Source of the DNA: Candidatus Aminicenantota bacterium
GTDB taxonomy: Bacteria > Acidobacteriota > Aminicenantia > Aminicenantales > Saccharicenantaceae
Length of the DNA: 64,000 nt
Direction of reading: 5' to 3'
Assembly: GCA_014360015.1 (NCBI GenBank)
Contig: JACIYJ010000009.1
Span: forward strand, 62,001 to 126,000
Positions 33,726 to 54,092 of this stretch are shown piece after piece. The first letter of the stretch is position 1; each line of letters starts with the position of its first letter. Below the pieces are notes generated by a model, which made no database searches, was not told the origin of the DNA, and saw only the letters and a program-made list of their open reading frames with translations. Position numbers and translations under genes: made by a program.

Positions 33726-36700
33726 GTTTCAATCCTTGTTTTACTGGAAGCTCCTCTCAAACACGGCAGAATGTCCTGAAGGCTTCTGGCTTCCGGTGGT
33801 TTCAATCCTTGTTTTACTGGAAGCTCCTCTCAAACCGTGTTGTTGTTTCTGAGTGGATGGAAGCAGCTCTGTTTCAATCCTTGTTTTACTGGAAGCTCCT
33901 CTCAAACAAAAAGAATAGCCAGGACAGAACTGGCATCTGCATAGTTTCAATCCTTGTTTTACTGGAAGCTCCTCTCAAACAGGAAAAAAGGACGCTCATC
34001 GTCCAGGCTCTCAAGCGTTTCAATCCTTGTTTTACTGGAAGCTCCTCTCAAACGATGGCCGAGCCTCCGGAGAGGAAAGATGTCAATACGTTTCAATCCT
34101 TGTTTTACTGGAAGCTCCTCTCAAACCTGAAAGTGGCAAGCCGATGGGCGGATACCCGATATTGTTTCAATCCTTGTTTTACTGGAAGCTCCTCTCAAAC
34201 GATTTCCACAGGCCCCCGTTTGCTTGCAATTATTGGTTTCAATCCTTGTTTTACTGGAAGCTCCTCTCAAACCGCCAGTCGTGACACCGGCGAGGTCAAA
34301 ATCGACAGGTTTCAATCCTTGTTTTACTGGAAGCTCCTCTCAAACTGGCCGAGGTGGTGGAGCCCTACCACACGACCTGGTAGTTTCAATCCTTGTTTTA
34401 CTGGAAGCTCCTCTCAAACACCGAGCTTTGGGAATGTCAGCGAAAGTTAAACGCGTTTCAATCCTTGTTTTACTGGAAGCTCCTCTCAAACCTGCTGGCT
34501 GCCCGCAGGGGTATGATCGAGATCGGGTTTCAATCCTTGTTTTACTGGAAGCTCCTCTCAAACCTCGGGTTCGCGGCCCATGGCCTGGCAGTGGCCGCGT
34601 TTCAATCCTTGTTTTACTGGAAGCTCCTCTCAAACCGGGGGAAAAATATATCGAGAGGAGGTAAAAATGTAGTTTCAATCCTTGTTTTACTGGAAGCTCC
34701 TCTCAAACATTTGAACCACTTAGGACGCTTGCCTGTTGCCCTAGTTTCAATCCTTGTTTTACTGGAAGCTCCTCTCAAACTGCCTTGGGGATCCAGATCC
34801 TCGGTCCTGTTAGCGGTTTCAATCCTTGTTTTACTGGAAGCTCCTCTCAAACCCCTCAACAACCTCATCGGTCTCGGGGTGAATTATCTGTTTCAATCCT
34901 TGTTTTACTGGAAGCTCCTCTCAAACCTGGTCAATATGGGTGGCCTGGAAATAAAAGCCAGAGGTTTCAATCCTTGTTTTACTGGAAGCTCCTCTCAAAC
35001 TGGGATGGAACCCGCTACTCCTGGCACCCCAGGCGTTTCAATCCTTGTTTTACTGGAAACTCCTCTCAAACGTCACCGGGGTCAGGGTCGCACTATCAAC
35101 TGTCGCAGTTTCAATCCTTGTTTTACTGGAAGCTCCTCTCAAACTCACGGGGCAATTGAGGAATCCATCGAGGCGGAGAGAGGTTTCAATCCTTGTTTTA
35201 CTGGAAGCTCCTCTCAAACATCCGCCTTGATTGGAATAATAATAGCAATTATTAGTTTCAATCCTTGTTTTACTGGAAGCTCCTCTCAAACTCTTATACC
35301 TAATAATTTTTCTTATCAAAAAGTTATTGTTTCAATCCTTGTTTTACTGGAAGCTCCTCTCAAACTGGATTATATTAAAAGTGAGAGCGAAAGCTCTGAA
35401 ACGTTTCAATCCTTGTTTTACTGGAAGCTCCTCTCAAACAAAAATTCAAAAATTTGAATTAAATTTTGATAACAAGTTTCAATCCTTGTTTTACTGGAAG
35501 CTCCTCTCAAACTCTTCAAGGTTCCAGCGGGAAATATCGTCCATCGCAGTTTCAATCCTTGTTTTACTGGAAGCTCCTCTCAAACCTGAAAAATTTTCAT
35601 TTTTTTCGTAAATTATTGAAAAGTTTCAATCCTTGTTTTACTGGAAGCTCCTCTCAAACTATTATCAAGGTTTGGGCGATGCCGGACGGGAGCGTGTTTC
35701 AATCCTTGTTTTACTGGAAGCTCCTCTCAAACTGATATTAATATCGCCATATGGCGTGGTAATTATATCGTTTCAATCCTTGTTTTACTGGAAGCTCCTC
35801 TCAAACCACCGTGGTTACAGAGGGGACTTCAGTCCCGTCTTTGTTTCAATCCTTGTTTTACTGGAAGCTCCTCTCAAACTCTATCCTTGTATCCCTTGTC
35901 TGTGGCAATGGACATGTTTCAATCCTTGTTTTACTGGAAGCTCCTCTCAAACCAGAGGAGAACCAGCCAGACCTGATAGACGAACTAAGTTTCAATCCTT
36001 GTTTTACTGGAAGCTCCTCTCAAACTGAGGGTTAAGCCATATAGCAGAAAGCGGAGCCAGTTTCAATCCTTGTTTTACTGGAAGCTCCTCTCAAACTCAG
36101 ATAGACTGGAGTTTGACTAGAAAGCCCGGCAGTTTCAATCCTTGTTTTACTGGAAGCTCCTCTCAAACCTGAAAGGGATTAATCGGATTAAAATCGCGGA
36201 TATGTTTCAATCCTTGTTTTACTGGAAGCTCCTCTCAAACACTGATGATATGGATTACAGCTCATTCATTGCCTAGTTTCAATCCTTGTTTTACTGGAAG
36301 CTCCTCTCAAACCTTTTTCAAGCTCTTCTTCCTCTAACTCTTCTACATAGTTTCAATCCTTGTTTTACTGGAAGCTCCTCTCAAACCGATTATATTGAGT
36401 CTGTCGTCAATCTCGAGTACAGTTTCAATCCTTGTTTTACTGGAAGCTCCTCTCAAACTGAATCTCGCCTTTGGGGCGACGCCGTATTTGGGTTTCAATC
36501 CTTGTTTTACTGGAAGCTCCTCTCAAACCCATCGGTTTTCACCTCCTATATTTACACTAATTATGGTTTCAATCCTTGTTTTACTGGAAGCTCCTCTCAA
36601 ACAGAAACAGGAGAAGTGGAAAAAGAAAATGGCCAAGGGTTTCAATCCTTGTTTTACTGGAAGCTCCTCTCAAACTCCGGCTGAATTCAAGGAATATTCT

Positions 36701-39700
36701 GAAAAGCTCGAGTTTCAATCCTTGTTTTACTGGAAGCTCCTCTCAAACAAAGATAGACTGGAGTTTGGCTAGAAATCCCGGCAGTTTCAATCCTTGTTTT
36801 ACTGGAAGCTCCTCTCAAACAAAGATTATTTGGCATTTAAGGAATGGGCATTGGGTTTCAATCCTTGTTTTACTGGAAGCTCATCTCAAACAGGCCGTTA
36901 AGGCCGAGGCCGAGGCCGGGGAATAGGAGTTTCAATCCTTGTTTTACTGGAAGCTCCTCTCAAACTTGACAAAAAATCAATTGTCAATTGACACTTTTAT
37001 TTGTTTCAATCCTTGTTTTACTGGAAGCTCCTCTCAAACCCATAGGTTGCTTCATCATGATATTCCGCATAATCGTTTCAATCCTTGTTTTACTGGAAGC
37101 TCCTCTCAAACAATGGGTCTCCGGCCACAAAGCCAAATGTTACATCAGTTTCAATCCTTGTTTTACTGGAAGCTCCTCTCAAACTGGATTTTCGTTTTAA
37201 GGGCAAGAAGCTTTACTTCTTGTTTCAATCCTTGTTTTACTGGAAGCTCCTCTCAAACAAAGCTCCACGCCAGGGCCAAGGGGAAGGGGTTCCAGTTTCA
37301 ATCCTTGTTTTACTGGAAGCTCCTCTCAAACCGAAATGGTCAGAAGAGAAGGCTGGCTCAAGCACAAGTTTCAATCCTTGTTTTACTGGAAGCTCCTCTC
37401 AAACATCCTGATGGCTATATTGAAATCGGCCAGATATGGCGTTTCAATCCTTGTTTTACTGGAAGCTCCTCTCAAACATGGACTTAATCCAAATTCTTCT
37501 TATACCTACAAGATGTTTCAATCCTTGTTTTACTGGAAGCTCCTCTCAAACTTTGGTTATTTTTTCGACGTCCTCTTTGGTCTCTTTGTTTCAATCCTTG
37601 TTTTACTGGAAGCTCCTCTCAAACACGGGAGTCGCTGTGGTTCCAGTATTTACTTCCACGGTTTCAATCCTTGTTTTACTGGAAGCTCCTCTCAAACCAA
37701 AAACCCGCCTGACCATTAATCCACCACCTCCAGTTTCAATCCTTGTTTTACTGGAAGCTCCTCTCAAACAAGACTAAAAAAGAGAAACAAGAAATATCTT
37801 AATAGTTTCAATCCTTGTTTTACTGGAAGCTCCTCTCAAACTCTCATTCTTTTTCCCATCAGATGAAAAGAAGGTAAGTTTCAATCCTTGTTTTACTGGA
37901 AGCTCCTCTCAAACATAATATGGAAGGATTAATTCAACACCAAGACCTTTCGAGTTTCAATCCTTGTTTTACTGGAAGCTCCTCTCAAACTGTCTACCTG
38001 ATTCTGCGCGATGGCGCCTACAGCCCGTTTCAATCCTTGTTTTACTGGAAGCTCCTCTCAAACGAGATTGACCACGCTCTCGATATAATCGTCAGGAAGT
38101 CCGTTTCAATCCTTGTTTTACTGGAAGCTCCTCTCAAACTATGCCGAAAAGATATTACAAGGTTGTATATACCATGTTTCAATCCTTGTTTTACTGGAAG
38201 CTCCTCTCAAACAGAGATTACCGGCGATGGAGCTCCGTATTGCTGAACTAGTTTCAATCCTTGTTTTACTGGAAGCTCCTCTCAAACGTCAGATAGACTG
38301 GAGTTTGATTAGAAAGCCCAGCAGTTTCAATCCTTGTTTTACTGGAAGCTCCTCTCAAACTGGTCAGAGCTGAATGCCTTCCCGGCCTATTCAATGTTTC
38401 AATCCTTGTTTTACTGGAAGCTCCTCTCAAACCTGGCAAGACGACCCAAAACTCGCCATTAGCTTTACCGTTTCAATCCTTGTTTTACTGGAAGCTCCTC
38501 TCAAACTTGGTGTTGGTAATAGCATGATTTGATATTGCCGAGTTTCAATCCTTGTTTTACTGGAAGCTCCTCTCAAACCATTAATTGCAGGGTAGTTTGT
38601 CTTCTGGCTTGAAGTTTCAATCCTTGTTTTACTGGAAGCTCCTCTCAAACTAATATAGAGAATATTAGTAAGATAGCTTCGACGCCGTTTCAATCCTTGT
38701 TTTACTGGAAGCTCCTCTCAAACCCTTAAGCCTTCATAGCCCTTGCCAGCGTTCTCAAGTTTCAATCCTTGTTTTACTGGAAGCTCCTCTCAAACTTTGT
38801 TCGGCGTATTCCAGCACCTCGTCGTTTAGTTGTTTCAATCCTTGTTTTACTGGAAGCTCCTCTCAAACAGGGGTTTTGAAGGAAAGGCTCTCAATGATGA
38901 GCTGTTTCAATCCTTGTTTTACTGGAAGCTCCTCTCAAACTCAGATAGACTGGAGTTTGATTAGAAAGCCCAGCAGTTTCAATCCTTGTTTTACTGGAAG
39001 CTCCTCTCAAACTATGCCGAAAAGATATTACAAGGTTGTATATACTATGTTTCAATCCTTGTTTTACTGGAAGCTCCTCTCAAACACCTTCGGTTGTAAC
39101 TTTCGGTTGTAACTTTTCATTGGTTTCAATCCTTGTTTTACTGGAAGCTCCTCTCAAACCCTTAAGCCTTCATAGCCCTTGCCAGCGTTCTCAAGTTTCA
39201 ATCCTTGTTTTACTGGAAGCTCCTCTCAAACTAGAACCTGGTTGGATAAGGCTTCGGTTATGGCATGTTTCAATCCTTGTTTTACTGGAAGCTCCTCTCA
39301 AACTCGGCGGTGATTATGTATTTGATATCAGCCATTGCGTTTCAATCCTTGTTTTACTGGAAGCTCCTCTCAAACTCAGAACGGTATCTCGAAGGGAACC
39401 AAAGAAAAAAGTTTCAATCCTTGTTTTACTGGAAGCTCCTCTCAAACTGATATTCTGATTACTCTTCGTGCAGCCTTGAAACTGTTTCAATCCTTGTTTT
39501 ACTGGAAGCTCCTCTCAAACAAAAAGACCGAAGCGAGAAGAAAAGCAGCAAAAGAGGTTTCAATCCTTGTTTTACTGGAAGCTCCTCTCAAACAGAAGAG
39601 GAAGAATATTGCGCGGGAAGAAAGATGATGTTTCAATCCTTGTTTTACTGGAAGCTCCTCTCAAACTCCGAATTGTTCCACCCCTGTCCTGAATTCCTGC

Positions 39701-39800
39701 AGTTTCAATCCTTGTTTTACTGGAAGCTCCTCTCAAACTCTTTCATTTTCTTTTCTCCTTTTGGGTATTTTTCCGTTTCAATCCTTGTTTTACTGGAAGC
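33726..39800 (-). CRISPR. CRISPR array, leader-distal part (83 full repeats plus a split one)
   Basis: A 37-bp direct repeat recurs every 70-76 bases with unique 33-39-bp spacers. On the plus strand it begins GTTTCAATCC, continues TTGTTTTACTGGAAG, and ends CTCTCAAAC. I count 83 intact copies starting at 33726 and ending with the one at 39702, then positions 1-26 of another at 39775-39800, interrupted by the IS. The reverse complement ends ATTGAAAC, the common 5' handle of type I crRNAs, so the array should be read on the minus strand and this is the oldest end. Two repeats carry substitutions: 35035 (position 25, G to A) and 36855 (position 29, C to A). Several spacers here are near-duplicates. 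Confidence 0.98.
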
Positions 39801-39822
39801 TGTTGTTGTCAAGCAAAAAGTT

Positions 39823-39843
39823 CCAGAAATGGCAAAGAAAATG
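39823..39843 (+). repeat. Left 21-bp inverted repeat of the IS21 element
   Basis: It begins CCAGAAATGGCAAAGAAA and matches the reverse complement of 42231-42251 without a mismatch. IS21-type elements carry such subterminal repeats as transposase-binding sites. Confidence 0.85.
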
Positions 39844-39885
39844 ACCCACCCCTTATTGGGCCCGGAAGGCCGGCATTTTAGAAGA

Positions 39886-40647
39886 TTATTTATCCGAATC
39901 ATTTTCTGTTTTTGCTCTTTTCTGTTTATAATTTTGCATTCGGTAACTATCTCCCTTGATGACGATTATTCGGCAATGATGGATAATCCGGTCGATAATT
40001 GCTGTAGCCAGCACCGGATCCCAGAACACTTCGCCCCATTCCTCGAAGCTCTTGTTGGAGGTGATTATGAGGGAGCCTTTTTCATAACGACGGGAGACGA
40101 TTTCATAAAACTCATCGACGGTTTGCTGGTTTAACCTTTTGAAGCCTAACTCATCTAATATCAACAGGTTAGGTGCAAGATAATACCTCATTTTTAGATG
40201 ATAGGTGTTATCGGCCTTAGAGGCAACGAGGGAGTTAATCATCTCGTTGACTGTGGTGAAGAGAACTTTATAGCCTTGCTCCAAAGCTTTCATCCCTAAG
40301 GCGGTGGCCAGATGAGTCTTTCCCACGCCGGGGGGCCCGATGAAGAGAAGATTTTCTCGTTTTCGGATAAACTCGCAAGTAGCACAGTCAAAAATCAGCC
40401 GTTTATTCAGCTGCGGTTGGAATCGAAAATCAAACTCCTCCAGAGTCTTTGGGGAAGGAAAATGCGCCCGGCTCAGGCGTTTTCGGTAGCCATTATCGCG
40501 GCGAGAGGAGAGCTCATCCTCTAAAAGCAGAGAGAGAAAATCCAGGAAGGAAAGCCTCTCCGACAAGGCATACTCATTGCGGACCTCCAGCGCTTTGGCC
40601 ATCCCGGGAAGCTTTAACTCAATGAGCTGGCGTTTTATGGTTTCCAT
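39886..40647 (-). CDS. istB: IS21-family helper ATPase IstB
   Basis: IstB is the AAA+ ATPase that loads onto target DNA and stimulates the IstA transposase. The Walker A motif GPPGVGKTHLA and Walker B LLILDELGF are present, with sensor-like LIITSNK later. I start at ATG 40647 (253 residues, METIKRQLIELK), with GAGGAG just upstream; this leaves 7 bases to the istA stop. The ATG at 40674 would overlap istA and lacks that signal. The frame is intact. Confidence 0.93.
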   Translation of the reverse strand: METIKRQLIELKLPGMAKALEVRNEYALSERLSFLDFLSLLLEDELSSRRDNGYRKRLSRAHFPSPKTLEEFDFRFQPQLNKRLIFDCATCEFIRKRENLLFIGPPGVGKTHLATALGMKALEQGYKVLFTTVNEMINSLVASKADNTYHLKMRYYLAPNLLILDELGFKRLNQQTVDEFYEIVSRRYEKGSLIITSNKSFEEWGEVFWDPVLATAIIDRIIHHCRIIVIKGDSYRMQNYKQKRAKTENDSDK

Positions 40648-40654
40648 GGTCTCC

Positions 40655-42124
40655 TCAATCCAACAAGCTCTCATAATCGGAAAGCGGCCTGGCCATCTTG
40701 CTGGTTTCCACTGTTTTCTGAGCTTCTGGCTCTTCCCATTCCACCTGATGCAGTCTTTTCTCCAGAATGTTCTTAATCACCCGATACCCATAGGCCTCAT
40801 AAAAAAGCGCCCGTTTACAGGCCAGGTTCACAGACTCCGAACCATACTTTTTGGCTAAATATAGAATCCCATAAATGACCTTGGCCCAGTAGCCTTCCTG
40901 ACGTCGCACAATCTCCTGAAAATAGCGTTCCGCAAAGGGACCGATCTCGGCCATCCTCTGGCGATACTTCTCTTGATACTCTGTTTTCGAAACTAACTTC
41001 CAGGAAGGATAATGGGCGCTGTTTGTCTGGAACTTCCCTTGCCCTTTAAGTCGTGGATGAGTACAGAGGAGTTTCCCTTCTTCTTGGCTCAGGGGATTAA
41101 TCCCATCATAGACCTTGACCAAGCTCTCCGTAACCTGCAAAGTCACTTCTTTCCCGCAGTAAGCGTAGGGAACCGAATAATAATTATTTTCAAAGACCAG
41201 GTGGCAGTTCAGTCCCACCTTCCTCCGTAACCATAGGCTCATATCATAATCCTCTGCCGGAAGAACCTGAAGCCTGGGCCTCTCCTCTTGCTCAAAAAGC
41301 TCCCGAGGTTGCCTTTTCGTCGTGCCATGAATCCTTTCGTGTGATACTCTCTCCGTCCATTCCCGAAGCTGTCGGTTACAATCGTTAATGTCTTCAAACT
41401 CCCGTCCCCTAAAAAAGTTTGACTTCACATATTTCACCCTTGACTCAGCCTGGGCATTATCCGTCGGCGTTCGTACTCTCGAGGGAGAGGGTGAAAAACC
41501 ATAATGACGAGAGAACAGCAAATAATCACGCTGATACTCGGGTTCATAAAAATGAGCCTTAAGCACTGCCGACTTTAAATTATCAATCTTGATTATCCGG
41601 GGCACCCCGCCAAAATACCGGAAAGCATGGATGTGACAGTTTAGAAACGACTGGACCTCCTGAGAGAAAACCACCTCATAATAATCAATCTTCGAAAAAG
41701 AAAAACCATAGCAGAAGACCCAGGCCTTCCTCAACCGACCCTCTGAATCACTAAGTCGGCCGGCATATCCAAAGTCAACCTGGGCTTCTTCTCCCGGGAG
41801 CGAAACATTATGCATATACACCGGCTGGCTGTCTTTCTTGATCTTCCGCACCAATAACTTGACTGTGCTGTAAGAACCTTTATAAGAAGTCTCTTTCACC
41901 AGATCCTGATGAATCCTCACCGCAGTCAGCCCCTGGGCGACTTTCGCCCGAACAATCTCTTCATATGCGTCTATAATCGATGGAACGGTCTTGCGCCTCA
42001 GTTCCTGGCCCTCGTCAACCCTCTTCAAGACCCGCCGCACAGCCTTCCGGCTACATCCAACTATCTTGGCAATCTGGGTCTTGTTATACCCCTTCTCAAA
42101 GAGCGTTTTAATAGTTATATGCAT
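40655..42124 (-). CDS. istA: IS21-family transposase IstA
   Basis: IstA is a DDE transposase. An N-terminal helix-turn-helix (YNKTQIAKIVGCSRKAVRRV) precedes the integrase core. The catalytic acids are likely D in EAQVDFGYAG, D in KIDNLKSAV and E in DNAQAESRVKY. The C-terminal half contains the Mu-transposase-like small domain (NYYSVPYAYCGKEVTLQV). ATG 42124 is preferred, with AGGAG 7 bases upstream; ATG 42139 would add five residues. There are about 489 residues with no disruption. Confidence 0.93.
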   Translation of the reverse strand: MHITIKTLFEKGYNKTQIAKIVGCSRKAVRRVLKRVDEGQELRRKTVPSIIDAYEEIVRAKVAQGLTAVRIHQDLVKETSYKGSYSTVKLLVRKIKKDSQPVYMHNVSLPGEEAQVDFGYAGRLSDSEGRLRKAWVFCYGFSFSKIDYYEVVFSQEVQSFLNCHIHAFRYFGGVPRIIKIDNLKSAVLKAHFYEPEYQRDYLLFSRHYGFSPSPSRVRTPTDNAQAESRVKYVKSNFFRGREFEDINDCNRQLREWTERVSHERIHGTTKRQPRELFEQEERPRLQVLPAEDYDMSLWLRRKVGLNCHLVFENNYYSVPYAYCGKEVTLQVTESLVKVYDGINPLSQEEGKLLCTHPRLKGQGKFQTNSAHYPSWKLVSKTEYQEKYRQRMAEIGPFAERYFQEIVRRQEGYWAKVIYGILYLAKKYGSESVNLACKRALFYEAYGYRVIKNILEKRLHQVEWEEPEAQKTVETSKMARPLSDYESLLD

Positions 42125-42230
42125 CGCCACTCCTAACATTCCAGTCCCTCCTAAAAAACTTCTCGGAAGAACTGGATTCTATCGCTTCCCCTCCCTCAAA
42201 ACCATAAACTTCTCCCTTGAAAAAGTGGGC

Positions 42231-42251
42231 CATTTTCTTTGCCATTTCTGG
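42231..42251 (-). repeat. Right 21-bp inverted repeat of the IS21 element
   Basis: It is the exact reverse complement of 39823-39843 and lies 22 bases inside the right end. A partial additional copy (CAATGGCAAAATAA on the minus strand) lies between it and the tip. Confidence 0.85.
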
Positions 42252-42273
42252 ATACTTTATTTTGCCATTGGCA

Positions 42274-45200
42274 GAAGCTCCTCTCAAACTTCGGTGATAT
42301 TTTCCCAAGAGCATGTTTCAAAATGTTTCAATCCTTGTTTTACTGGAAGCTCCTCTCAAACCAAGGTTTTGGCGGCGGCGATAATCTATCAGGCCGGGTT
42401 TCAATCCTTGTTTTACTGGAAGCTCCTCTCAAACGTAATAATAGCCAGAAATAGAATGAAGGGCTTCCCTGTTTCAATCCTTGTTTTACTGGAAGCTCCT
42501 CTCAAACTCAACCAGCTGTCAAGCCTATTTTCAATATTCCAACGGTTTCAATCCTTGTTTTACTGGAAGCTCCTCTCAAACTATTGAGAGTGCAGCCGAG
42601 GCGGAGAAAAAAGCACTGTTTCAATCCTTGTTTTACTGGAAGCTCCTCTCAAACACGAAATGGACTGAAGAGAAGGCTGGCTCAAGCACAGTTTCAATCC
42701 TTGTTTTACTGGAAGCTCCTCTCAAACTCTATGTTAAGAATAAGTAGCGCTATCAATTAAGGGGTTTCAATCCTTGTTTTACTGGAAGCTCCTCTCAAAC
42801 GCAAGACCCGGAGCTTTTCGACCGGTTCAGACGAAGTTTCAATCCTTGTTTTACTGGAAGCTCCTCTCAAACCTTGAACGAAAATAATCGGCCGGCCATC
42901 ACGAATAGGTTTCAATCCTTGTTTTACTGGAAGCTCCTCTCAAACATGGGAATCGTCATGTAGCCGAATATCATATTTCCGTTTCAATCCTTGTTTTACT
43001 GGAAGCTCCTCTCAAACTTTGAAATATGGGAAATCGAAGTGGATGGTATTCAGTTTCAATCCTTGTTTTACTGGAAGCTCCTCTCAAACCCTTTTCTTTT
43101 TTGGATGTTGAAAAATATATCAAGGTTTCAATCCTTGTTTTACTGGAAGCTCCTCTCAAACCAGACGAACAAAAGACGGGAAACTTTTCAACCGAATGTT
43201 TCAATCCTTGTTTTACTGGAAGCTCCTCTCAAACTATTGCTGGACCTCGGACCCACACCCCGCCTTCGAGTTTCAATCCTTGTTTTACTGGAAGCTCCTC
43301 TCAAACCCTGGCCGATATGCAAGATCATAGCCAGGAGAGGATGTTTCAATCCTTGTTTTACTGGAAGCTCCTCTCAAACTAAGCAACATTAATTCGCACG
43401 GCTTTAGGAAAAATTGTTTCAATCCTTGTTTTACTGGAAGCTCCTCTCAAACCTGAAGTCCTCGAAACAATATCACGGAGGTAAGAATGTTTCAATCCTT
43501 GTTTTACTGGAAGCTCCTCTCAAACCTTGTATCACCACCACCATCTTTGTTTATACTTTGTTGTTTCAATCCTTGTTTTACTGGAAGCTCCTCTCAAACT
43601 AAAAAGATGGGAAACAAAAAGGAATGCGATTGCGCAGTTTCAATCCTTGTTTTACTGGAAGCTCCTCTCAAACTCGGCCCCGAGTTTTTTAGCCCTTCCT
43701 TTTTCGAGTTTCAATCCTTGTTTTACTGGAAGCTCCTCTCAAACTCATGATATTTTCTCCGCTTTTGTTTTTGTTTCCTGTTTCAATCCTTGTTTTACTG
43801 GAAGCTCCTCTCAAACGCTATTTCATCAATGCGATATTTCTTTTTGATGAGTTTCAATCCTTGTTTTACTGGAAGCTCCTCTCAAACTAGTTTTGTTCCC
43901 GTTACCAAAACCGGAATCATTTTGTTTCAATCCTTGTTTTACTGGAAGCTCCTCTCAAACAACAAACACATAGGTTTTCATGCTAATTTCTCCTGTTTCA
44001 ATCCTTGTTTTACTGGAAGCTCCTCTCAAACACTGATGGGACAAGGCCTGGCTCAAGAAAAAATAGAGTTTCAATCCTTGTTTTACTGGAAGCTCCTCTC
44101 AAACATATCCAAATTTCCTGCGTGGCGAAAACTTCTCCTAGTTTCAATCCTTGTTTTACTGGAAGCTCCTCTCAAACCGTTGCGAACACTTCGGTTATTA
44201 TAGGGGTTAAGCAAGTTTCAATCCTTGTTTTACTGGAAGCTCCTCTCAAACACGAACATCAGACACAGTGCGGACAACACCCAAACCAGTTTCAATCCTT
44301 GTTTTACTGGAAGCTCCTCTCAAACTCTGTCTGAAATCCTTTCCGGAAAGAGGACTCCATCGTTTCAATCCTTGTTTTACTGGAAGCTCCTCTCAAACTC
44401 CTGAATATTTTCAGAAAAAGGAGGAAAAATGATGTTTCAATCCTTGTTTTACTGGAAGCTCCTCTCAAACTTGGTGTGTCCATCTTGTTCAACCCTCACT
44501 TGGATAGTTTCAATCCTTGTTTTACTGGAAGCTCCTCTCAAACCCAGGTTTCCATTTTCATCTTTTTCAAATTGATACTGTTTCAATCCTTGTTTTACTG
44601 GAAGCTCCTCTCAAACCCGATTTCTTGTGTGGCCGCATAGAGCTGGTCGGGTTTCAATCCTTGTTTTACTGGAAGCTCCTCTCAAACTTGGCACACCCTA
44701 TCACGTCGGCGATACCGAGCATTAGTTTCAATCCTTGTTTTACTGGAAGCTCCTCTCAAACAAAAAAGTGGGAAACAAAAAGAAACGCTCTTGCCTAGTT
44801 TCAATCCTTGTTTTACTGGAAGCTCCTCTCAAACCCATAATCACCGATACCGAGACGTTTTGCGTGCGCTATGTTTCAATCCTTGTTTTACTGGAAGCTC
44901 CTCTCAAACAAATCTTGAAAATGCTGAAGGAGGGGCAATGAGCTAGTTTCAATCCTTGTTTTACTGGAAGCTCCTCTCAAACTTGTAGGTACCGGGTGTA
45001 TTGGCGGTGGCGTCCCTAGTTTCAATCCTTGTTTTACTGGAAGCTCCTCTCAAACAAATATATCCAGGGAAAAGATGTAATTCCGATCTGTTTCAATCCT
45101 TGTTTTACTGGAAGCTCCTCTCAAACTCTAAGAAACATGATAAAAACCGGCAGACCGTCGAAGCGTTTCAATCCTTGTTTTACTGGAAGCTCCTCTCAAA

Positions 45201-47171
45201 CTCTTTCACCGAATGGAAAAATGAACGAGCTGCTGTTGTTTCAATCCTTGTTTTACTGGAAGCTCCTCTCAAACCGTTTTCCGATCCGTTCTCGTTGCTC
45301 GAGCAGGACATGTTTCAATCCTTGTTTTACTGGAAGCTCCTCTCAAACTTTTGAAAAATCTTCGCTCTACGGGCCTCTGAAGGCGTTTCAATCCTTGTTT
45401 TACTGGAAGCTCCTCTCAAACACTGGGTCGACATGGAGAATAATATGGAATTTCATGTTTCAATCCTTGTTTTACTGGAAGCTCCTCTCAAACGCAATGA
45501 TAGAATCTGTTTCTTTCAGCTTTGCCTCGTTTCAATCCTTGTTTTACTGGAAGCTCCTCTCAAACAGGTTGACAATGAGCTTGTAATCAAGGTCGTCGAG
45601 GGTTTCAATCCTTGTTTTACTGGAAGCTCCTCTCAAACATGGTATCAGGTAGACGGGCAGGAATACGGATACATGTTTCAATCCTTGTTTTACTGGAAGC
45701 TCCTCTCAAACTTGAACCGCCTCACCATTCTGGAAGTCCGGCTCTGTTTCAATCCTTGTTTTACTGGAAGCTCCTCTCAAACTTTTTGAAAAGCAAAATT
45801 CCATATTCGGAATTAGACAGTTTCAATCCTTGTTTTACTGGAAGCTCCTCTCAAACCTGTATCGTCAGGACAAAAATGGAAAAGAAGAAATGTTTCAATC
45901 CTTGTTTTACTGGAAGCTCCTCTCAAACATATCTTTTTCAAGGAGAGCATATGCTTCCTGGACGGGTTTCAATCCTTGTTTTACTGGAAGCTCCTCTCAA
46001 ACTGGCCTGGATGGGCGGGATTGCGGCAGTCCAGGGATGTTTCAATCCTTGTTTTACTGGAAGCTCCTCTCAAACTGTATTGTTTGGTTCCGTAAGTGAT
46101 ACCAATTTGGGTGTTTCAATCCTTGTTTTACTGGAAGCTCCTCTCAAACAGCGACGGCCGTATGAGATAGAAGCCTATAGAATTAGTTTCAATCCTTGTT
46201 TTACTGGAAGCTCCTCTCAAACTCATTCCCGCCGGAGCAGTATCAGCGACAAGACCACGGTTTCAATCCTTGTTTTACTGGAAGCTCCTCTCAAACCTCA
46301 GAGCGGATGATCTGGCGCAGCTTGTTTTCTGGGTTTCAATCCTTGTTTTACTGGAAGCTCCTCTCAAACACAGGTTCTTGCCGGTCTGCGTATGATTGCG
46401 TCAGGTTTCAATCCTTGTTTTACTGGAAGCTCCTCTCAAACCAGGGGAAACGGCTACCAGGACCGCCACGACCGGTTGTTTCAATCCTTGTTTTACTGGA
46501 AGCTCCTCTCAAACTTAGTTCGTCTGGCGCACTGACCGTCACAACATCGGTTTCAATCCTTGTTTTACTGGAAGCTCCTCTCAAACTGATTGATGTTCCA
46601 TTCTCGCCGCTTCGGGAAATCAGTTTCAATCCTTGTTTTACTGGAAGCTCCTCTCAAACTTACCGCCTCCTGTCCGGAATCCTTGAGATAATCCAGTTTC
46701 AATCCTTGTTTTACTGGAAGCTCCTCTCAAACCCTGACCAAGCTGGCCTATGATATGGCGAGCTTCTAGTTTCAATCCTTGTTTTACTGGAAGCTCCTCT
46801 CAAACCCCTCATATAGAATGCTTCCATCATCCCATTTCCGTAGTTTCAATCCTTGTTTTACTGGAAGCTCCTCTCAAACTCCGCCGTTTTGAAATAAGGG
46901 GGACGACAATGGTTTGTTTCAATCCTTGTTTTACTGGAAGCTCCTCTCAAACTGGCTGCTCAAGCCCTATTGCTTCAGATGACAAGATGTTTCAATCCTT
47001 GTTTTACTGGAAGCTCCTCTCAAACCTCACCCATCACCCGCCCCCTTTTGCCAAGTCTACCCGTTTCAATCCTTGTTTTACTGGAAGCTCCTCTCAAACT
47101 CATATCGGTTAGCCGCCTCTATATGCTCATCCCTGTTTCAATCCTTGTTTTACTGGAAGCTCCTCTCAAAC
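42274..47171 (-). CRISPR. CRISPR array, leader-proximal part (67 full repeats plus the other half of the split one)
   Basis: The first element (42274-42289) is positions 22-37 of the repeat broken by the IS. It is followed by a 35-bp spacer and then 67 intact 37-bp repeats from 42325 to 47135-47171. Every repeat I read here matches the consensus. With the left part this gives 151 repeats and 150 spacers, one of the larger arrays I know of. On the predicted minus-strand transcript this part is read first, so it holds the newest spacers. Immediately to the right are an AT-rich leader and the adaptation genes cas4, cas2 and cas1. Confidence 0.98.
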
Positions 47172-47467
47172 AATATTTTCACACTTACTTATTAATTTAC
47201 AATAAGTTAAATAATTTTTACTCGAACTATTTATTGGCACTTTTAAGCCAAAGAAGACACATTTTTTAATAATTTTTTTTACATTTGGCATCGCTGTTTC
47301 GAAGTTATTATATTGATTATCAATAAAATACAGAACCTCAGGAAAATCTTGGCAATAAATTCTTCTCATTAGTCTTTCTGTGGGCGTAAAAATGCACTTC
47401 CTTTTATTCGATAGTTCATATAAGCACATACTTTTTAGCATCTCTGTAACCTGTCTATTATCAATAA
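47172..47467 (-). promoter_or_regulatory. CRISPR leader
   Basis: This roughly 295-bp AT-rich, gene-free stretch lies between the last repeat and cas4, on the side indicated by repeat orientation. The motif ATTATCAATAAA occurs twice (47316-47327 and 47457-47468), 141 bases apart, and may bind an integration host or Cas protein. A 91-residue frame crosses it and enters the first repeat; I regard that as chance. Confidence 0.7.
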
Positions 47468-47496
47468 ATTATACACAAATATTGCGATAACAACAA
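47468..47496 (-). promoter_or_regulatory. Putative pre-crRNA promoter at the end of cas4
   Basis: On the minus strand, TTGTTG (47491-47496), 17 bases, TATAAT (47468-47473). It overlaps the last codons of cas4 and would start RNA near 47461, about 290 bases before the first repeat. Confidence 0.45.
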
Positions 47497-48167
47497 TCTA
47501 TGCATCGGTTCTGCCAGGCAGTCTTTTTGGGGTAATACCCTTTTACAATTATATCAAAAATCTCGGTAATCATCTCCCTGGCAAAATTAAAATCATTTTG
47601 GCTATAAATAATCTCCTTAATTCGGTTCCTTCCCCTAACGTAGCAAATAAAGCCTTTCTTAACTGTCTGCCTATAATTCTCCATTATAAGCAAAGCATAG
47701 ACGGTAGACTGGACTCGGTGAGTCCTAAAAATAAAATCATTGTACTCTGCATATTTATAATCGAGGGGCGCCAAAGTGCCATCGGATAAATAAAGAACTT
47801 CATCGATTATCCCTCTTACACCTAACCTTTTTGAAGCGATATAAACTGAAATTTCTTTTTTGACACAGCCGAGCCTTTTTCTGAGATAGTCAATGTTGGT
47901 CTTCTCCTTATTCTCATGCAGCTCTCTACCTTTCAAAACTTTGTACCTTAATTCTTCATGCTGAGGGATGTTCAAACAGTTCATAAAATAGGTATACCTG
48001 GGGCAAAAAAGATGTTCTATTATTTCTGAAGGAGTAATCATAGGAGTCGTTTCGGTATCAAACTCAAAATCCATTGCAGAAAAAACCGAGCAAGGATTTT
48101 CTTCCAGGATTATTTCCTGCTCTCCAGCTCCCTGATTTCCCTCTTTTTGATCTCTTATAATATTCAT
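47469..48167 (-). CDS. cas4: CRISPR adaptation nuclease Cas4
   Basis: Cas4 trims and orients prespacers by PAM before integration. It is a RecB-like nuclease with a first iron-sulfur cysteine in LFCPRYTYF and three more in the C-terminal CIDCCYRNIC. Nuclease residues are in GIIDEVL, LAPLDYKYAEY and the following helix with Q (RVQSTVYALL). The annotated 232 residues include about 40 before the usual start; MITPSEIIEHLFCPR at internal Met43 is a plausible alternative. It is the last gene of the cas operon and directly borders the leader, in a position suited to coupling with new-spacer insertion. Confidence 0.9.
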   Translation of the reverse strand: MNIIRDQKEGNQGAGEQEIILEENPCSVFSAMDFEFDTETTPMITPSEIIEHLFCPRYTYFMNCLNIPQHEELRYKVLKGRELHENKEKTNIDYLRKRLGCVKKEISVYIASKRLGVRGIIDEVLYLSDGTLAPLDYKYAEYNDFIFRTHRVQSTVYALLIMENYRQTVKKGFICYVRGRNRIKEIIYSQNDFNFAREMITEIFDIIVKGYYPKKTAWQNRCIDCCYRNICV

Positions 48168-48176
48168 TTAATTCTC

Positions 48177-49456
<1,280 letters not shown>

Positions 49457-49462
49457 TTTTTA

Positions 49463-50128
49463 TTATCCAATCTTCTTAACTGTCCCAAAACCTCTGGAAA
49501 CAGATTTGCCAATGCCCCAATAATCGGGAATCTCAAAATTAACAGCGAACGTGCCCAGAAAGCCAATCATGGGGACATCTTTTAGCTTTGCGCTTACCTC
49601 CTTGAAATTTTTGATTTCTGCTCTAATGGGTTCAGTGACTGTATATCCAAGACTTTTGGACATAGAGAGGATGTTGCCAACAAGAATGCTTTCCAGCAGT
49701 TCTTTTCTTTTAGACCAGCTCCCGAACTTCTGGTATTTTTCATAATTCTTTTCATTCAAAGCCAGCCAGGGAGTAAGGAAGGAATAGGTCACTTGATTAG
49801 AAACTAATAAAAATGATGATTTATAACTTTCCAACCCTTTAACTAAAATTTCTTCCCATCTTCCATTGATATTCAGAGCTTTCAATTCATTAAAAGTTTT
49901 TTTAACAATTTCAATGCCTTCGTTAAAGCCAATTAAAAAACATGCCCCTTCAATGACTTTGTATTGAATACAGGGGTACCGATAAACAAAACTTCCGTCA
50001 GATTGGTGCTGATGAGCATAAGGGTTATCCCAAAACAGATGTCCAAAAAAGCCTCTTATCTTTATAGCATCTGATATTGAAAGTTTGTTATCCACTTCAA
50101 TAGTAAGTTTGATTATTTCTATTTCCAC
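49463..50128 (-). CDS. cas6: CRISPR RNA endonuclease Cas6
   Basis: Cas6 cuts pre-crRNA in the repeats and leaves the 8-base handle ATTGAAAC. The 221-residue protein begins MEIEIIKLTIEV and ends with the family's glycine-rich loop GIGKSVSRGFGTVKK. H39 and H41 (AHQHQ) are candidates for the general acid. The segment GFFGHLFWDNPYAH resembles a Cas6 subgroup from thermophile-type I-B loci. It lies between cas3 (4 bases) and cas1 (6 bases), rather than at the operon start where I-B cas6 is usually found. Confidence 0.8.
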   Translation of the reverse strand: MEIEIIKLTIEVDNKLSISDAIKIRGFFGHLFWDNPYAHQHQSDGSFVYRYPCIQYKVIEGACFLIGFNEGIEIVKKTFNELKALNINGRWEEILVKGLESYKSSFLLVSNQVTYSFLTPWLALNEKNYEKYQKFGSWSKRKELLESILVGNILSMSKSLGYTVTEPIRAEIKNFKEVSAKLKDVPMIGFLGTFAVNFEIPDYWGIGKSVSRGFGTVKKIG

Positions 50129-50132
50129 GATA

Positions 50133-52478
50133 TCACCAAATAACTACTGATTTCTCATCTTTTATCTTAAACCCAGTATCTTTATCATAATAATCATCAA
50201 GAAGGGACCTCTTTACATATCCAATTCCTCCAATTATCTCTGGCATATTTTGGGCGTTTTGGGGAATTGATATTACATAACTATAGAAATTTGACTTGAT
50301 AGCATCGAAGGCCTGCTTTTTTTGAAATCTGTCTTTGATGTTTATTATAGATTTAAATTCATTCCAGATTTTTTCTGCTTCTTCATCAATTTCAATAAAA
50401 ATATCTATCTTAGGATAATCTTCTTCGATAAGACTAAAATCTGATACAGATAGGTTCCTCTCATCGTCTTCATCTCTGTCATATCTTAATCTACAAACTG
50501 CTTCTAAAATCTCTTTTGAATCTGCTTTAGTTGTTTTTTCGTGGATCATAAAATAATATTCCTCGAGGAGTTTCAAAAACTCTTTCTCTTGAATCTCTTG
50601 CTTTTTTGATAATATCTTTTCTGTTATATCGAGTAAAACAGGATCATAAATATAAGAAGCATATTTTTTTCCTTTAGAATCCGTTAGGGCTACTATTAAG
50701 ACCAGGCCCTTTCCGTTGCCATTTCTGTTACACCTCCCTGCAGATTGGTTAAGAGAGTCAAGTGGGGCAAAATCTCTTACCACGACGTCGAAATCTATGT
50801 CAACACCCGCTTCAACTAATTGCGTGGAAACCACTATCTTATATTTTCCTTTTTTTATATCATCGATTCGTTGGTGCCTTTCTTTTGGCGTGATGTGAGA
50901 TGAAAGGTAGCCTAAACATCGTCCATTTTCTTCTTTAATCTTTCGGTAAAACTCTCGGGCCGAGGAAATTGTATTAAAAATAAAAAGATATGTTTTATCA
51001 TCATCAATAGTGATCGATTCTTTCAGTTCATCCAGCGTAAGGGATTTATCTAATTTAGGGATTAGAGAAATTCTATTTAGCGAATTAAAATAGGTTTCCC
51101 TATTAACTAAACTTAAAACTTGATCTTTCTCGAAGATGAAAGGCTCTGTTGCGGTAGAGATGATTATGTGGGCATTGAGCATTTCTTTAATTTTATTAAA
51201 TATCTCCCTCACCAAAAACCAGTATCTTGTTGGGATAGACTGGACTTCGTCTAATATGATTATTGAATTTGCCAATCTGTGGAATTTTCTGATACTCCTA
51301 TTTTTATTCGTAATAAGTGTATGAAATAACTGTATAAATGTGGTAACAATAATCTCAGAATTCCAGCCTTCAATTAGAATTTTAGCTTCGTCAGGTTCAA
51401 GCTCATCTTCTTCAATTTTATAATAAATTTCTGACAAATGATGATGCTTTAGCAATAATTTTGAATCTGGCAAAAAACCGTTTGCTTTGATTACGGCTTC
51501 GAATATTTTTGAATTCTGATCGATAATACTTAAAAAAGGCAAAGCATAAACTATTCGTGGATTTATACCTGTCTGCTTTAATTTATCTTTTAGTTTTAAA
51601 GCGAAAGATAAGCTAATAAGAGTCTTTCCTAAACCAGTAGGCAGATTAAGTGAATAAATTTTTTTTGAAAGATCTATTTCTTTATTCATTGCCTCCTCAT
51701 AGGCAGTTTGTCTCATCTCATTAATAGGCGATGGCGGGAAACGAGTAGCCTTTTTATAGAAATCAACCCAATTTCTATCTTCATAGAATTTTCTTTCAAA
51801 GATTGAAATTTCTTTGATCACAACATCATTTTTGTCGGCATCAAGGAGCAAAGAATAAAGCAGATTTAGTTTTATGTAGTATTCGAGGTTCAAATTTAGG
51901 TTTCTTATAATTTTTCTAAAAGACTTTATTTCCCCGTTGAAACTGTTAATCCATTGAAAAATGATGTTCTTATCTAATCTAATAGGAAGACCGGCTCTTA
52001 AGAGTTTATCAGCAACAATTCCAAAGGCATTATCATCTATGCTTTCAAGTTGTTTATTAAGTAAATTAATATCTTTATCGTCAAAAATTGAAACTTCATC
52101 TAAAATATTTATTAAATCACTATGATGTCTTCTTACGGTCACATAAGCAAAAAGAGGATAAATATCGCTAATGCCCGACATTTGTTTAGTAAGATAAAAA
52201 GCGCATACTGCAGAAAAGAGACTATGATGTGTCTCTTTTGATTTTAGTTTTTCTTTTTCATCATCAGCAGCAAATAGATACCTTTGAAAATAATGGGTCG
52301 CCTTACCAAGGTCATGGCTAAGAGCAATTATCCGTGCAGTTTCGAACAACTCATTTTCTATGCACTTGGGCTTTTCAGAAAGAAACAAATTTATCAGATT
52401 TGATGTACCTATAAGATGATCTTCAAGGAGTCTGTCAGGATGAGAAAAAAGTTTAGAAGAAGGTAATATATTCTCCAT
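50133..52478 (-). CDS. cas3: CRISPR nuclease-helicase Cas3 (HD plus helicase)
   Basis: Cas3 is recruited to Cascade-bound target DNA, unwinds it and degrades it. The N-terminal HD nuclease shows H55-D56 in ALSHDLGKATHYF and ETHHSLFSAV. The SF2 helicase has Walker A LPTGLGKTLIS, a DExH-box variant ILDEVQSIP, STATEP, and motif VI SAGRCNRNG. I start at ATG 52478 (781 residues), because family proteins begin near LFSHPDRLLEDHL; the ATG at 52535 lies deep inside cas5. Either way it overlaps the cas5 end. A second, HD-less Cas3-like helicase is encoded at 56375. Confidence 0.92.
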   Translation of the reverse strand: MENILPSSKLFSHPDRLLEDHLIGTSNLINLFLSEKPKCIENELFETARIIALSHDLGKATHYFQRYLFAADDEKEKLKSKETHHSLFSAVCAFYLTKQMSGISDIYPLFAYVTVRRHHSDLINILDEVSIFDDKDINLLNKQLESIDDNAFGIVADKLLRAGLPIRLDKNIIFQWINSFNGEIKSFRKIIRNLNLNLEYYIKLNLLYSLLLDADKNDVVIKEISIFERKFYEDRNWVDFYKKATRFPPSPINEMRQTAYEEAMNKEIDLSKKIYSLNLPTGLGKTLISLSFALKLKDKLKQTGINPRIVYALPFLSIIDQNSKIFEAVIKANGFLPDSKLLLKHHHLSEIYYKIEEDELEPDEAKILIEGWNSEIIVTTFIQLFHTLITNKNRSIRKFHRLANSIIILDEVQSIPTRYWFLVREIFNKIKEMLNAHIIISTATEPFIFEKDQVLSLVNRETYFNSLNRISLIPKLDKSLTLDELKESITIDDDKTYLFIFNTISSAREFYRKIKEENGRCLGYLSSHITPKERHQRIDDIKKGKYKIVVSTQLVEAGVDIDFDVVVRDFAPLDSLNQSAGRCNRNGNGKGLVLIVALTDSKGKKYASYIYDPVLLDITEKILSKKQEIQEKEFLKLLEEYYFMIHEKTTKADSKEILEAVCRLRYDRDEDDERNLSVSDFSLIEEDYPKIDIFIEIDEEAEKIWNEFKSIINIKDRFQKKQAFDAIKSNFYSYVISIPQNAQNMPEIIGGIGYVKRSLLDDYYDKDTGFKIKDEKSVVIW

Positions 52479-53169
52479 TTTCAAGTTTATAACAGGTCTT
52501 AACCCGTGCTTTAATTGTTTGCCCATCGGGTTCATATATTACATCATCATAAAGTTCCACCACTCTATCCGGATTCATTTTAATAGGCATTTTTTCTTTG
52601 AAATATTTCTTGCCCTGCTCTATGGTAATTTCGGAATCTATTAAATTACCAGCTACAATTGGGGTTGATATTTCTGTAAATATATCTTTTAATTCTTTTG
52701 CTTCAAGAACTCCTACGTATTTAAAGTCTGCCAATAATTCGCTTAGCCCGAGAGAAATTGAATATACACATTTATGTTCTCTTACATTCTGCTCAAGAAC
52801 CTTAAATATCCCCCTATCTTCATGAGAAACATAAATCCTGAAATATGGATCCTTAAGAAACTCTGTTCGGATCTGGGTTCTTGGTTCATGGTGTTTGGTT
52901 TGAATAGGTTGCCAGTTAAAATCCTTTGTATTAATTAAGTTCATTCCCATCCTTACTTTTTTTACTGGTGAGGCAATCTTTAAACCTATTTTGCAGGTTT
53001 CAAATGAAAACACTTTTAGATACTCATTCTTGTTAAAGCCACAGATGGCACCTAAAATACCTGCAATAGTAGATGGAGGGGGAAAAGAAAAGGTAAGTGG
53101 AGAACTGGTGGTAAAAAACTTTCTAAAATGCCCATAATCACCCCAAATATCAAAAACCAATACCTTCAT
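52453..53169 (-). CDS. cas5: Cascade subunit Cas5 (type I-B)
   Basis: Cas5 caps the 5' handle of crRNA in Cascade. The 238-residue protein starts with the RAMP strand KVLVFDIWGDYGHFRK, followed by PLTFSFPPPSTIAGILGA, the Cas5 signature in I-B systems. It starts 8 bases after cas7 and runs into cas3. Cas6, not Cas5, should be the processing enzyme here. Confidence 0.9.
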   Translation of the reverse strand: MKVLVFDIWGDYGHFRKFFTTSSPLTFSFPPPSTIAGILGAICGFNKNEYLKVFSFETCKIGLKIASPVKKVRMGMNLINTKDFNWQPIQTKHHEPRTQIRTEFLKDPYFRIYVSHEDRGIFKVLEQNVREHKCVYSISLGLSELLADFKYVGVLEAKELKDIFTEISTPIVAGNLIDSEITIEQGKKYFKEKMPIKMNPDRVVELYDDVIYEPDGQTIKARVKTCYKLENGEYITFF

Positions 53170-53177
53170 GGTAGCCC

Positions 53178-54089
53178 TTAAAAAACCAACTCTGTTACAG
53201 GTAATTTGATCAAGGCTTTCCTTATATCTATATCATTATTATCTTTTACAAAGGTGATTCTTTCATCAACTTTAAGTCTTATGTTTTCAACCTTGGCCAA
53301 GTTCTCTTCCAGCCTATTAACAAGGGCTGTTATATCAATTTTTAAATCTGTAATATCCCTGATAGTCTCATCAACTTTATCAGAACGCATAGAAATTAGT
53401 TTATCAAGTTCTCCAATGTGAAAATCCTGCCCTTCTTTATAGACGACCTGCATAAGCAGCCGGGGCATCTGACCGAATTTTGAACCAGAAATAAGGTTTT
53501 TAGTCCCATTCCACATGGCCTCAAGCATTAGGTCAATGTCAGATTCAGTCAAAGGTATGTTCTGATTTTTCGCAGCATTTTCATTCACGATTCCATAAAA
53601 GGCAATAAGAGAATAAGGAAGGATATACCGCTCTGTAAAAGTACCCTGTTTCCTTTCAGCTCCTGATGGCATAACAGTAGTACCTTTTATATAAGTTAAG
53701 TCAACCTTATGTAATGACCGGCCGTATTTAAACTGGACAGGACCAGTGTATACAATTGTCCTATTTTCAACCGCTGTGGTAGAGCCAAAGAGTCTGATAT
53801 CTATACACTTTTCAACAATTGACTCGCCATCAAAATCATTAAGTCTCTCCTCTTTGGTTTTTAAATTGCCATCCTCTTTTCTTATTTCACGGATAAAAAT
53901 TTCCTGTCCTTTGTGCTCATATAGATAATCCCTGATAGTCCTTTTTAGCCTTACATCAGTAACTATATTTACTCCTGATTCCTCATCTATTCTCGGCTTG
54001 TTTTCATCAACAGGGTCTCCGTTAGGATTGGCATCCTTCACGTCATAAAGAAACAGAATTTCAGAACGATTTTTAATTATTTTAGACAT
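53178..54089 (-). CDS. cas7: Cascade backbone subunit Cas7 (Csh2 type)
   Basis: Cas7 coats the spacer part of crRNA in multiple copies. The 303-residue protein has the Csh2/DevR signature FLYDVKDANPNGDP near the start and VTDVRLKRTIRDYL, then typical AVENRTIVYTGPVQFKYG and ERYILPYSLIAFYG. It follows cas8b after 3 bases and precedes cas5 by 8. All motifs seen are intact. Confidence 0.93.
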   Translation of the reverse strand: MSKIIKNRSEILFLYDVKDANPNGDPVDENKPRIDEESGVNIVTDVRLKRTIRDYLYEHKGQEIFIREIRKEDGNLKTKEERLNDFDGESIVEKCIDIRLFGSTTAVENRTIVYTGPVQFKYGRSLHKVDLTYIKGTTVMPSGAERKQGTFTERYILPYSLIAFYGIVNENAAKNQNIPLTESDIDLMLEAMWNGTKNLISGSKFGQMPRLLMQVVYKEGQDFHIGELDKLISMRSDKVDETIRDITDLKIDITALVNRLEENLAKVENIRLKVDERITFVKDNNDIDIRKALIKLPVTELVF

Positions 54090-54092
54090 AGC

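What the first reader, a model, noticed from the sequence alone, without database searches (positions are those of the whole stretch)
36097..38975. Four variant spacers from one protospacer
Spacers at about 36097-36131, 36749-36783, 38288-38323 and 38941-38975 share GATAGACTGGAGTTTG and differ by a few substitutions (for example GACTAG, GGCTAG, GATTAG). They are interspersed with unrelated spacers, so array duplication is unlikely. This looks like the same viral site sampled repeatedly as the virus changed.
Basis: partly seen in the sequence, partly recalled or inferred. Interest (0 to 1): 0.65.

Follow-up and report, generated by a model that had tools for sequence, protein, structure and literature searches.

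The report
One phage site re-sampled by CRISPR
A bacterium's CRISPR memory bank holds four near-copies of the same 35-base snippet, apparently captured at least four separate times from one spot in a changing family of invaders; this is a clear, well-documented case of a known behaviour, although the invader carrying that exact spot has not been found.

Summary
In detail: four spacers at the stated coordinates of a 149-spacer type I-B array share one 35-nt core. There are three distinct sequences, not four: 38288 and 38941 are identical except for one extra PAM-distal base. Five more related groups exist (38140/39013, 38724/39160, 37332/42655, 43600/44762, 36387/38064).

Re-acquisition fits best. 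No flanking spacers are duplicated in order. All four share the same PAM-side edge to the base; length differs only at the PAM-distal end. In 43600/44762, both spacers start right after the same TTCA in a phage terminase small-subunit gene found in three related phages. In 36387/38064, overlapping spacers encode an identical peptide through synonymous differences only. So the differences look mostly like ordinary divergence within a phage family, not escape; they do not cluster in the seed (P = 0.26).

The target of the four-spacer group was not found in IMG/VR, GenBank phages, plasmids or about 200 related genomes, so 'viral' is inferred there. Crossover between sibling arrays is the main untested rival. 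Re-acquisition is known but rarely reconstructed (8 of 24,090 spacers in one survey); four hits on one site in one array is unusual, not a new kind.

The parts
36097..36131 (-). G-group spacer (index 32); crRNA sense is the minus strand, PAM-proximal end at 36131
36749..36783 (-). G-group spacer (index 41); differs from 36097 at 4 of 35 positions
38288..38323 (-). G-group spacer (index 62), 36 nt; one extra base at the PAM-distal end relative to 38941
38941..38975 (-). G-group spacer (index 71), 35 nt; otherwise identical to 38288
38140..38175 (-). T-group spacer (index 60); pair of 39013, one difference at crRNA position 3, synonymous in the frame MPKRYYKVVYT
39013..39048 (-). T-group spacer (index 72)
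38724..38758 (-). C-group spacer (index 68), identical to 39160
39160..39194 (-). C-group spacer (index 74)
37332..37367 (-). S-group spacer (index 49); pair of 42655, two differences, whole frame shifted by one base
42655..42690 (-). S-group spacer (index 87)
43600..43636 (-). W-group spacer (index 100); targets phage terminase small-subunit gene just after TTCA
44762..44797 (-). W-group spacer (index 116); same PAM site of the same gene from a diverged phage
36387..36421 (-). D-group spacer (index 36); overlaps the target of 38064 on the other strand; shared peptide DYIESVVNL with only synonymous differences
38064..38102 (-). D-group spacer (index 59)
33726..39811 (-). older (leader-distal) part of the CRISPR array, 37-nt repeats GTTTCAATCCTTGTTTTACTGGAAGCTCCTCTCAAAC as written on +; last repeat cut by the insertion sequence
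39802..42273 (-). IS21-type insertion sequence (istB 39886-40674, istA 40655-42139) inside a CRISPR repeat, with GAAGCT repeated on both sides
42274..47171 (-). newer (leader-proximal) part of the CRISPR array
47172..47468 (-). putative AT-rich leader between cas4 and the first repeat
   Evidence: inferred from position and from the side on which PAMs lie
47469..49456 (-). adaptation genes cas4 (47469-48167), cas2 (48177-48482), cas1 (48479-49456)
49463..55814 (-). type I-B effector genes cas6b, cas3, cas5b, cas7 (Csh2), cas8b (TM1802)

Best explanation
The array belongs to a complete type I-B CRISPR-Cas locus with Cas1, Cas2 and Cas4. Its adaptation complex captured the same protospacer position at least four times over the growth of the array (36097 oldest, then 36749, 38288, 38941). 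Each time it started from the same PAM and cut the far end with about one base of slack. The sources were relatives of one invading element, most likely a phage family that this host met repeatedly, whose copies differ by mostly synonymous or conservative substitutions. Shown: same PAM-side edge, one-base far-end wobble, no in-order duplication of flanks, and for a sister pair the phage gene and the shared PAM. Inferred: that the source of the four is a phage, and that the captures happened in one cell lineage. Likely but unproven: the exact re-capture (38288/38941) reflects a preferred site fed by Cas3-made fragments (primed or interference-driven adaptation).
For: Six related-spacer groups far above chance. 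Neighbours within three positions of paired spacers are not duplicated in order; the order in the dense stretch is T-x-G-x5-C-x-x-G-T-x-C. Type I-B cas genes all on the minus strand next to the leader side. Spacers with phage matches have a PAM of mostly YYA (TTA, TCA, CCA, CTA) at the right end on +, which fixes polarity and the seed end. In the 43600/44762 pair both spacers begin directly after the same TTCA in the terminase small-subunit gene of L044, L050 and L051. In the 36387/38064 pair the shared peptide is identical while the DNA differs. One-base PAM-distal wobble and PAM slipping are measured features of type I acquisition (PMC5059440). Under uniform sampling of PAM sites in one 35-kb phage, a site hit four times has P about 0.0005 or less, so a preferred site or smaller source is needed.
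Against: No protospacer for the four-spacer group was found anywhere searched. The reading frame used to call changes synonymous is a best guess for this group. Crossover between sibling arrays that had each captured the site is not excluded. Re-acquisition is rare in surveys (8 of 24,090 spacers, against 695 duplications; PMC11472070).
Confidence: 0.74

Rival explanations
1. Crossover between sibling arrays: related cells each captured the site on their own during the same outbreak, and later recombination at the repeats joined their arrays into one.
For: Three groups (G, T, C) recur within 15 neighbouring spacers, P = 0.001 if placed at random, as if two records of one outbreak had been joined between positions 70 and 71.
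Against: Does not explain 36097 and 36749, which lie 21-39 spacers away; recombination between arrays is judged rare (PMC11472070). It still needs independent capture of the site.
Confidence: 0.12
2. Duplication inside the array followed by mutation of the copies.
For: Simple duplications are the commonest cause of repeated spacers (86% of complex events, PMC11472070). 38724/39160 are identical and could be one.
Against: No flanking spacers are copied in order; the repeats next to them are unchanged while spacers differ by up to 6 of 35 bases; a base is added exactly at a spacer edge; the 37332/42655 pair is shifted by one base at both ends.
Confidence: 0.07
3. The site belongs to a multi-copy or widespread element (plasmid, transposon or repeated gene) with coexisting divergent copies, so variants were taken from one genome or from unrelated elements rather than from a changing virus.
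For: The source was not found among phages. Small or multi-copy elements offer fewer PAM sites and would give repeats more easily.
Against: No match in 72,556 plasmids for this site, none in the host genome outside the array or in 198 relatives. Other spacers on both sides match a tailed phage family.
Confidence: 0.1
4. Escape series: each variant is an escape mutant of one phage selected by the previous spacer, then re-captured.
For: Differences at crRNA positions 4 and 8 (G) and 3 (T) lie in or near the type I seed.
Against: Only 3 of 9 differences lie in the seed, P = 0.26; the most diverged copy (36749) has changes spread over the spacer and at the far end; 38288 and 38941 are identical so no escape lies between them.
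Confidence: 0.15

Closest known systems
Spacer re-acquisition events as classified by SpacerPlacer (PMC11472070)
   Same: The same or nearly the same spacer enters an array more than once by separate insertion.
   Different: There it is rare (8 of 24,090 spacers) and mostly single repeats of identical spacers; here one site recurs four times with sequence change, beside five other groups.
Interference-driven and primed adaptation in type I systems (Pectobacterium atrosepticum I-F, PMC5059440)
   Same: PAM-anchored capture, PAM-distal length wobble, one-base slipping, repeated use of preferred sites.
   Different: Shown there by experiment on plasmids; here read from a natural I-B array of an uncultured bacterium, mechanism inferred.
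Viral variants with silent or conservative changes under Synechococcus spacers (PMC2612747)
   Same: Copies of one protospacer differ mainly by silent or conservative changes.
   Different: There the variants were seen in the virome against one spacer; here the host array itself holds the variants.
Clostridioides difficile type I-B adaptation (PMC8406132)
   Same: I-B system with Cas1-2-4, 5' PAM, spacers of 34-40 bp, uneven use of sites.
   Different: PAM there is YCN/CCN; here mostly YYA by the matches found.

Membership tests
Type I-B CRISPR-Cas | Cas8b, Cas7 (Csh2), Cas5b, Cas3, Cas6b in one operon | tested here: met
Type I-B CRISPR-Cas | Adaptation module Cas1, Cas2, Cas4 next to the array | tested here: met
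Type I-B CRISPR-Cas | 5' PAM next to protospacers | tested here: met
   mostly YYA upstream of protospacers in crRNA sense, with exceptions for spacers 52, 106, 128 and 143
Type I-B CRISPR-Cas | Active interference and adaptation | not testable with these tools
   genes look intact; expression not known; the older half of the array lies behind an insertion sequence
Repeated independent acquisition of one protospacer | Same PAM-side edge in all copies | tested here: met
   all four G spacers, T and C pairs
Repeated independent acquisition of one protospacer | Flanking spacers not duplicated in order | tested here: met
Repeated independent acquisition of one protospacer | Protospacer with PAM found in invader genomes | tested here: inconclusive
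   met for the 43600/44762 pair; not found for the four-spacer group
Seed or PAM escape series | Differences concentrated in the seed | tested here: not met
   3 of 9 in seed positions, P = 0.26
Tandem or segmental array duplication | Copied block of consecutive spacers | tested here: not met

The most novel reading that the evidence does not exclude
The site is an extreme acquisition hotspot: the host kept re-capturing it, even when it already carried a perfectly matching spacer (38288 then 38941; 38724 then 39160), which would mean that in this natural I-B system immunity itself feeds repeated capture of the same fragment, and the array keeps a time series of one viral site.
Probability: 0.25. 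Interest if true: 0.55.

Novelty: new member of a known kind. Interest (0 to 1): 0.4.

Why it matters
Arrays are usually read as lists of different targets. An array that samples one site again and again gives ordered snapshots of one invader locus, so divergence of the invader, choice of site and the value of redundant memory can be read from a single genome. It also shows that nearly identical spacers should not be collapsed as duplicates without checking their edges.

Tried and rejected
Six searches for the four-spacer site or its sister pairs in IMG/VR by degenerate patterns in three candidate reading frames and as plain DNA, plus start-of-gene and ENAGKGYEGLR patterns: no hits. An early-gene query from the matching phage found no relatives in IMG/VR. 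A 20/21-base match to Lactobacillus phage mv4 ORF 272 has E = 1 and reads in a frame that is stopped by TAG in the spacers; treated as chance. The BLAST match of spacer 33908 to an ftsA gene of a relative (7 mismatches) was set aside because the same spacer encodes KRIARTELASA, close to KRIARTELCSA of a phage head-morphogenesis protein. A diversity-generating retroelement as source was considered because in one frame all changes are non-synonymous; nothing supports it and another frame gives three synonymous and two conservative changes. The idea that the insertion sequence silenced old spacers and so caused re-capture was considered: only one pair (37332/42655) straddles it, so it explains little.

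Full report
Observation. The window holds one CRISPR array of 149 spacers with a 37-nt repeat, cut once by an IS21-type element. Three sequences are distinct; 38288 and 38941 agree over 35 bases and differ only by one extra base at the left end of 38288. Spacer-to-spacer alignment scores for the group are 46-70 against at most 28 in shuffled sets. The same comparison gives five further groups, and a peptide-level comparison gives no more.

Polarity. The cas genes are cas8b, cas7, cas5b, cas3, cas6b, cas1, cas2, cas4, all on the minus strand and ending just right of the array. An AT-rich stretch (47172-47468) separates cas4 from the array. Protospacers found in phages have a PAM, mostly YYA, on the side that corresponds to the right end of the spacers on +. 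So the leader is inferred on the right, the newest spacers are on the right, and the seed is at the right end of each spacer as written on +. The four spacers therefore run from oldest (36097) to youngest (38941).

What the other spacers hit. A search of 198 related genomes with nearly all spacers found matches in a 34.8-kb contig of a relative (G042:C54, JARYMI010000029.1, Clostridiales bacterium isolate A05DMB-I-28) and in a few short contigs. The contig carries an integrase-like gene, terminase, portal, capsid and tape-measure genes, so it is a tailed phage or prophage. Three IMG/VR contigs (L049-L051) encode its closest terminase relatives (77-88% identical), and L050 and L051 are also hit by spacers. 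Eighteen spacers have DNA or peptide support in this family, 13 of the 66 on the leader side of the insertion sequence and 5 of the 83 beyond it (P = 0.02); the list of 18 was drawn up by hand.

A proven sister case. Spacers 43600 and 44762 encode KRWETKRNAIA and KKWETKRNALA. In phage contigs L044, L050 and L051 the matching site lies in the terminase small-subunit gene, and both spacers begin directly after the same TTCA. This is one PAM site captured twice from diverged phages. Spacers 36387 and 38064 overlap on opposite strands and share the peptide DYIESVVNL although the DNA differs. Spacers 38140 and 39013 differ at one base, synonymous if the frame MPKRYYKVVYT is right.

The four-spacer group. 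All four share the PAM-side edge exactly. The length difference is at the PAM-distal end, where type I acquisition is known to be imprecise (PMC5059440). Differences lie at crRNA positions 4, 8, 15, 16, 34 and 35. In the frame AGLSSQTPVYL three of five assignable changes are synonymous and two are conservative (L/I, S/N); the other open frames give only or mostly replacements. Frame choice is an inference. Pooling G, T and S, 3 of 9 differences are in seed positions, which is not more than expected (P = 0.26).

Duplication or re-acquisition. The neighbours of the copies are not duplicated in order. In the stretch from 38140 to 39194 three groups recur within 15 spacers, more than random placement would give (P = 0.001), but in different order and with base and length differences. 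In-array duplication does not fit; crossover between sibling arrays that had each recorded the same outbreak remains possible. Under uniform choice among the PAM sites of one 35-kb phage a fourfold hit has a probability of 0.0005 or less, so the site is a preferred one, or the source is small, or the source was met very often.

Target search. The site was not found in IMG/VR by six patterns (two of them for sister pairs), in GenBank phages, in PLSDB plasmids, or in 198 related genomes with up to three mismatches; the host genome has it only in the array. The source is therefore unknown and its viral nature rests on analogy.

Comparison with what is known. Re-acquisition of a spacer is a recognised but rare class in a survey of arrays (PMC11472070), primed and interference-driven capture explain repeated sampling of the same invader (PMC5059440), and silent variation under a spacer has been seen in a virome (PMC2612747). 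This case is a rich example of these, not a new kind of system.

Verdict. Observation confirmed; interpretation partly supported: repeated capture yes, escape not shown, source unidentified.

Noticed in passing
38140-39194: Three separate groups of repeated spacers fall within 15 neighbouring spacers in scrambled order, more than expected by chance; could mark one long outbreak or a crossover of sibling arrays.
   Followed up: partly
39802-42273: IS21-type insertion sequence inside a CRISPR repeat, with GAAGCT on both sides; it separates 83 older spacers from the leader and may change their transcription.
   Followed up: partly
56375-57754: A second Cas3-like helicase (459 aa) upstream of cas8b; matches Cas3 helicase models, no HD nuclease domain reported by Pfam.
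   Followed up: no
34636-34671, 43453-43488, 44399-44433, 44910-44945: Several spacers contain what look like ribosome-binding sites followed by ATG, so protospacers at gene starts may be common; not counted against expectation.
   Followed up: no
L044, L045 (G042:C54, 34.8 kb): Tailed phage or prophage in a relative hit by many spacers, one with no mismatch (45712); likely representative of the phage family this host meets most.
   Followed up: yes
35035-35071 and 36855-36891: Two repeats in the array each carry one changed base; all others are identical apart from the one cut by the insertion sequence.
   Followed up: no
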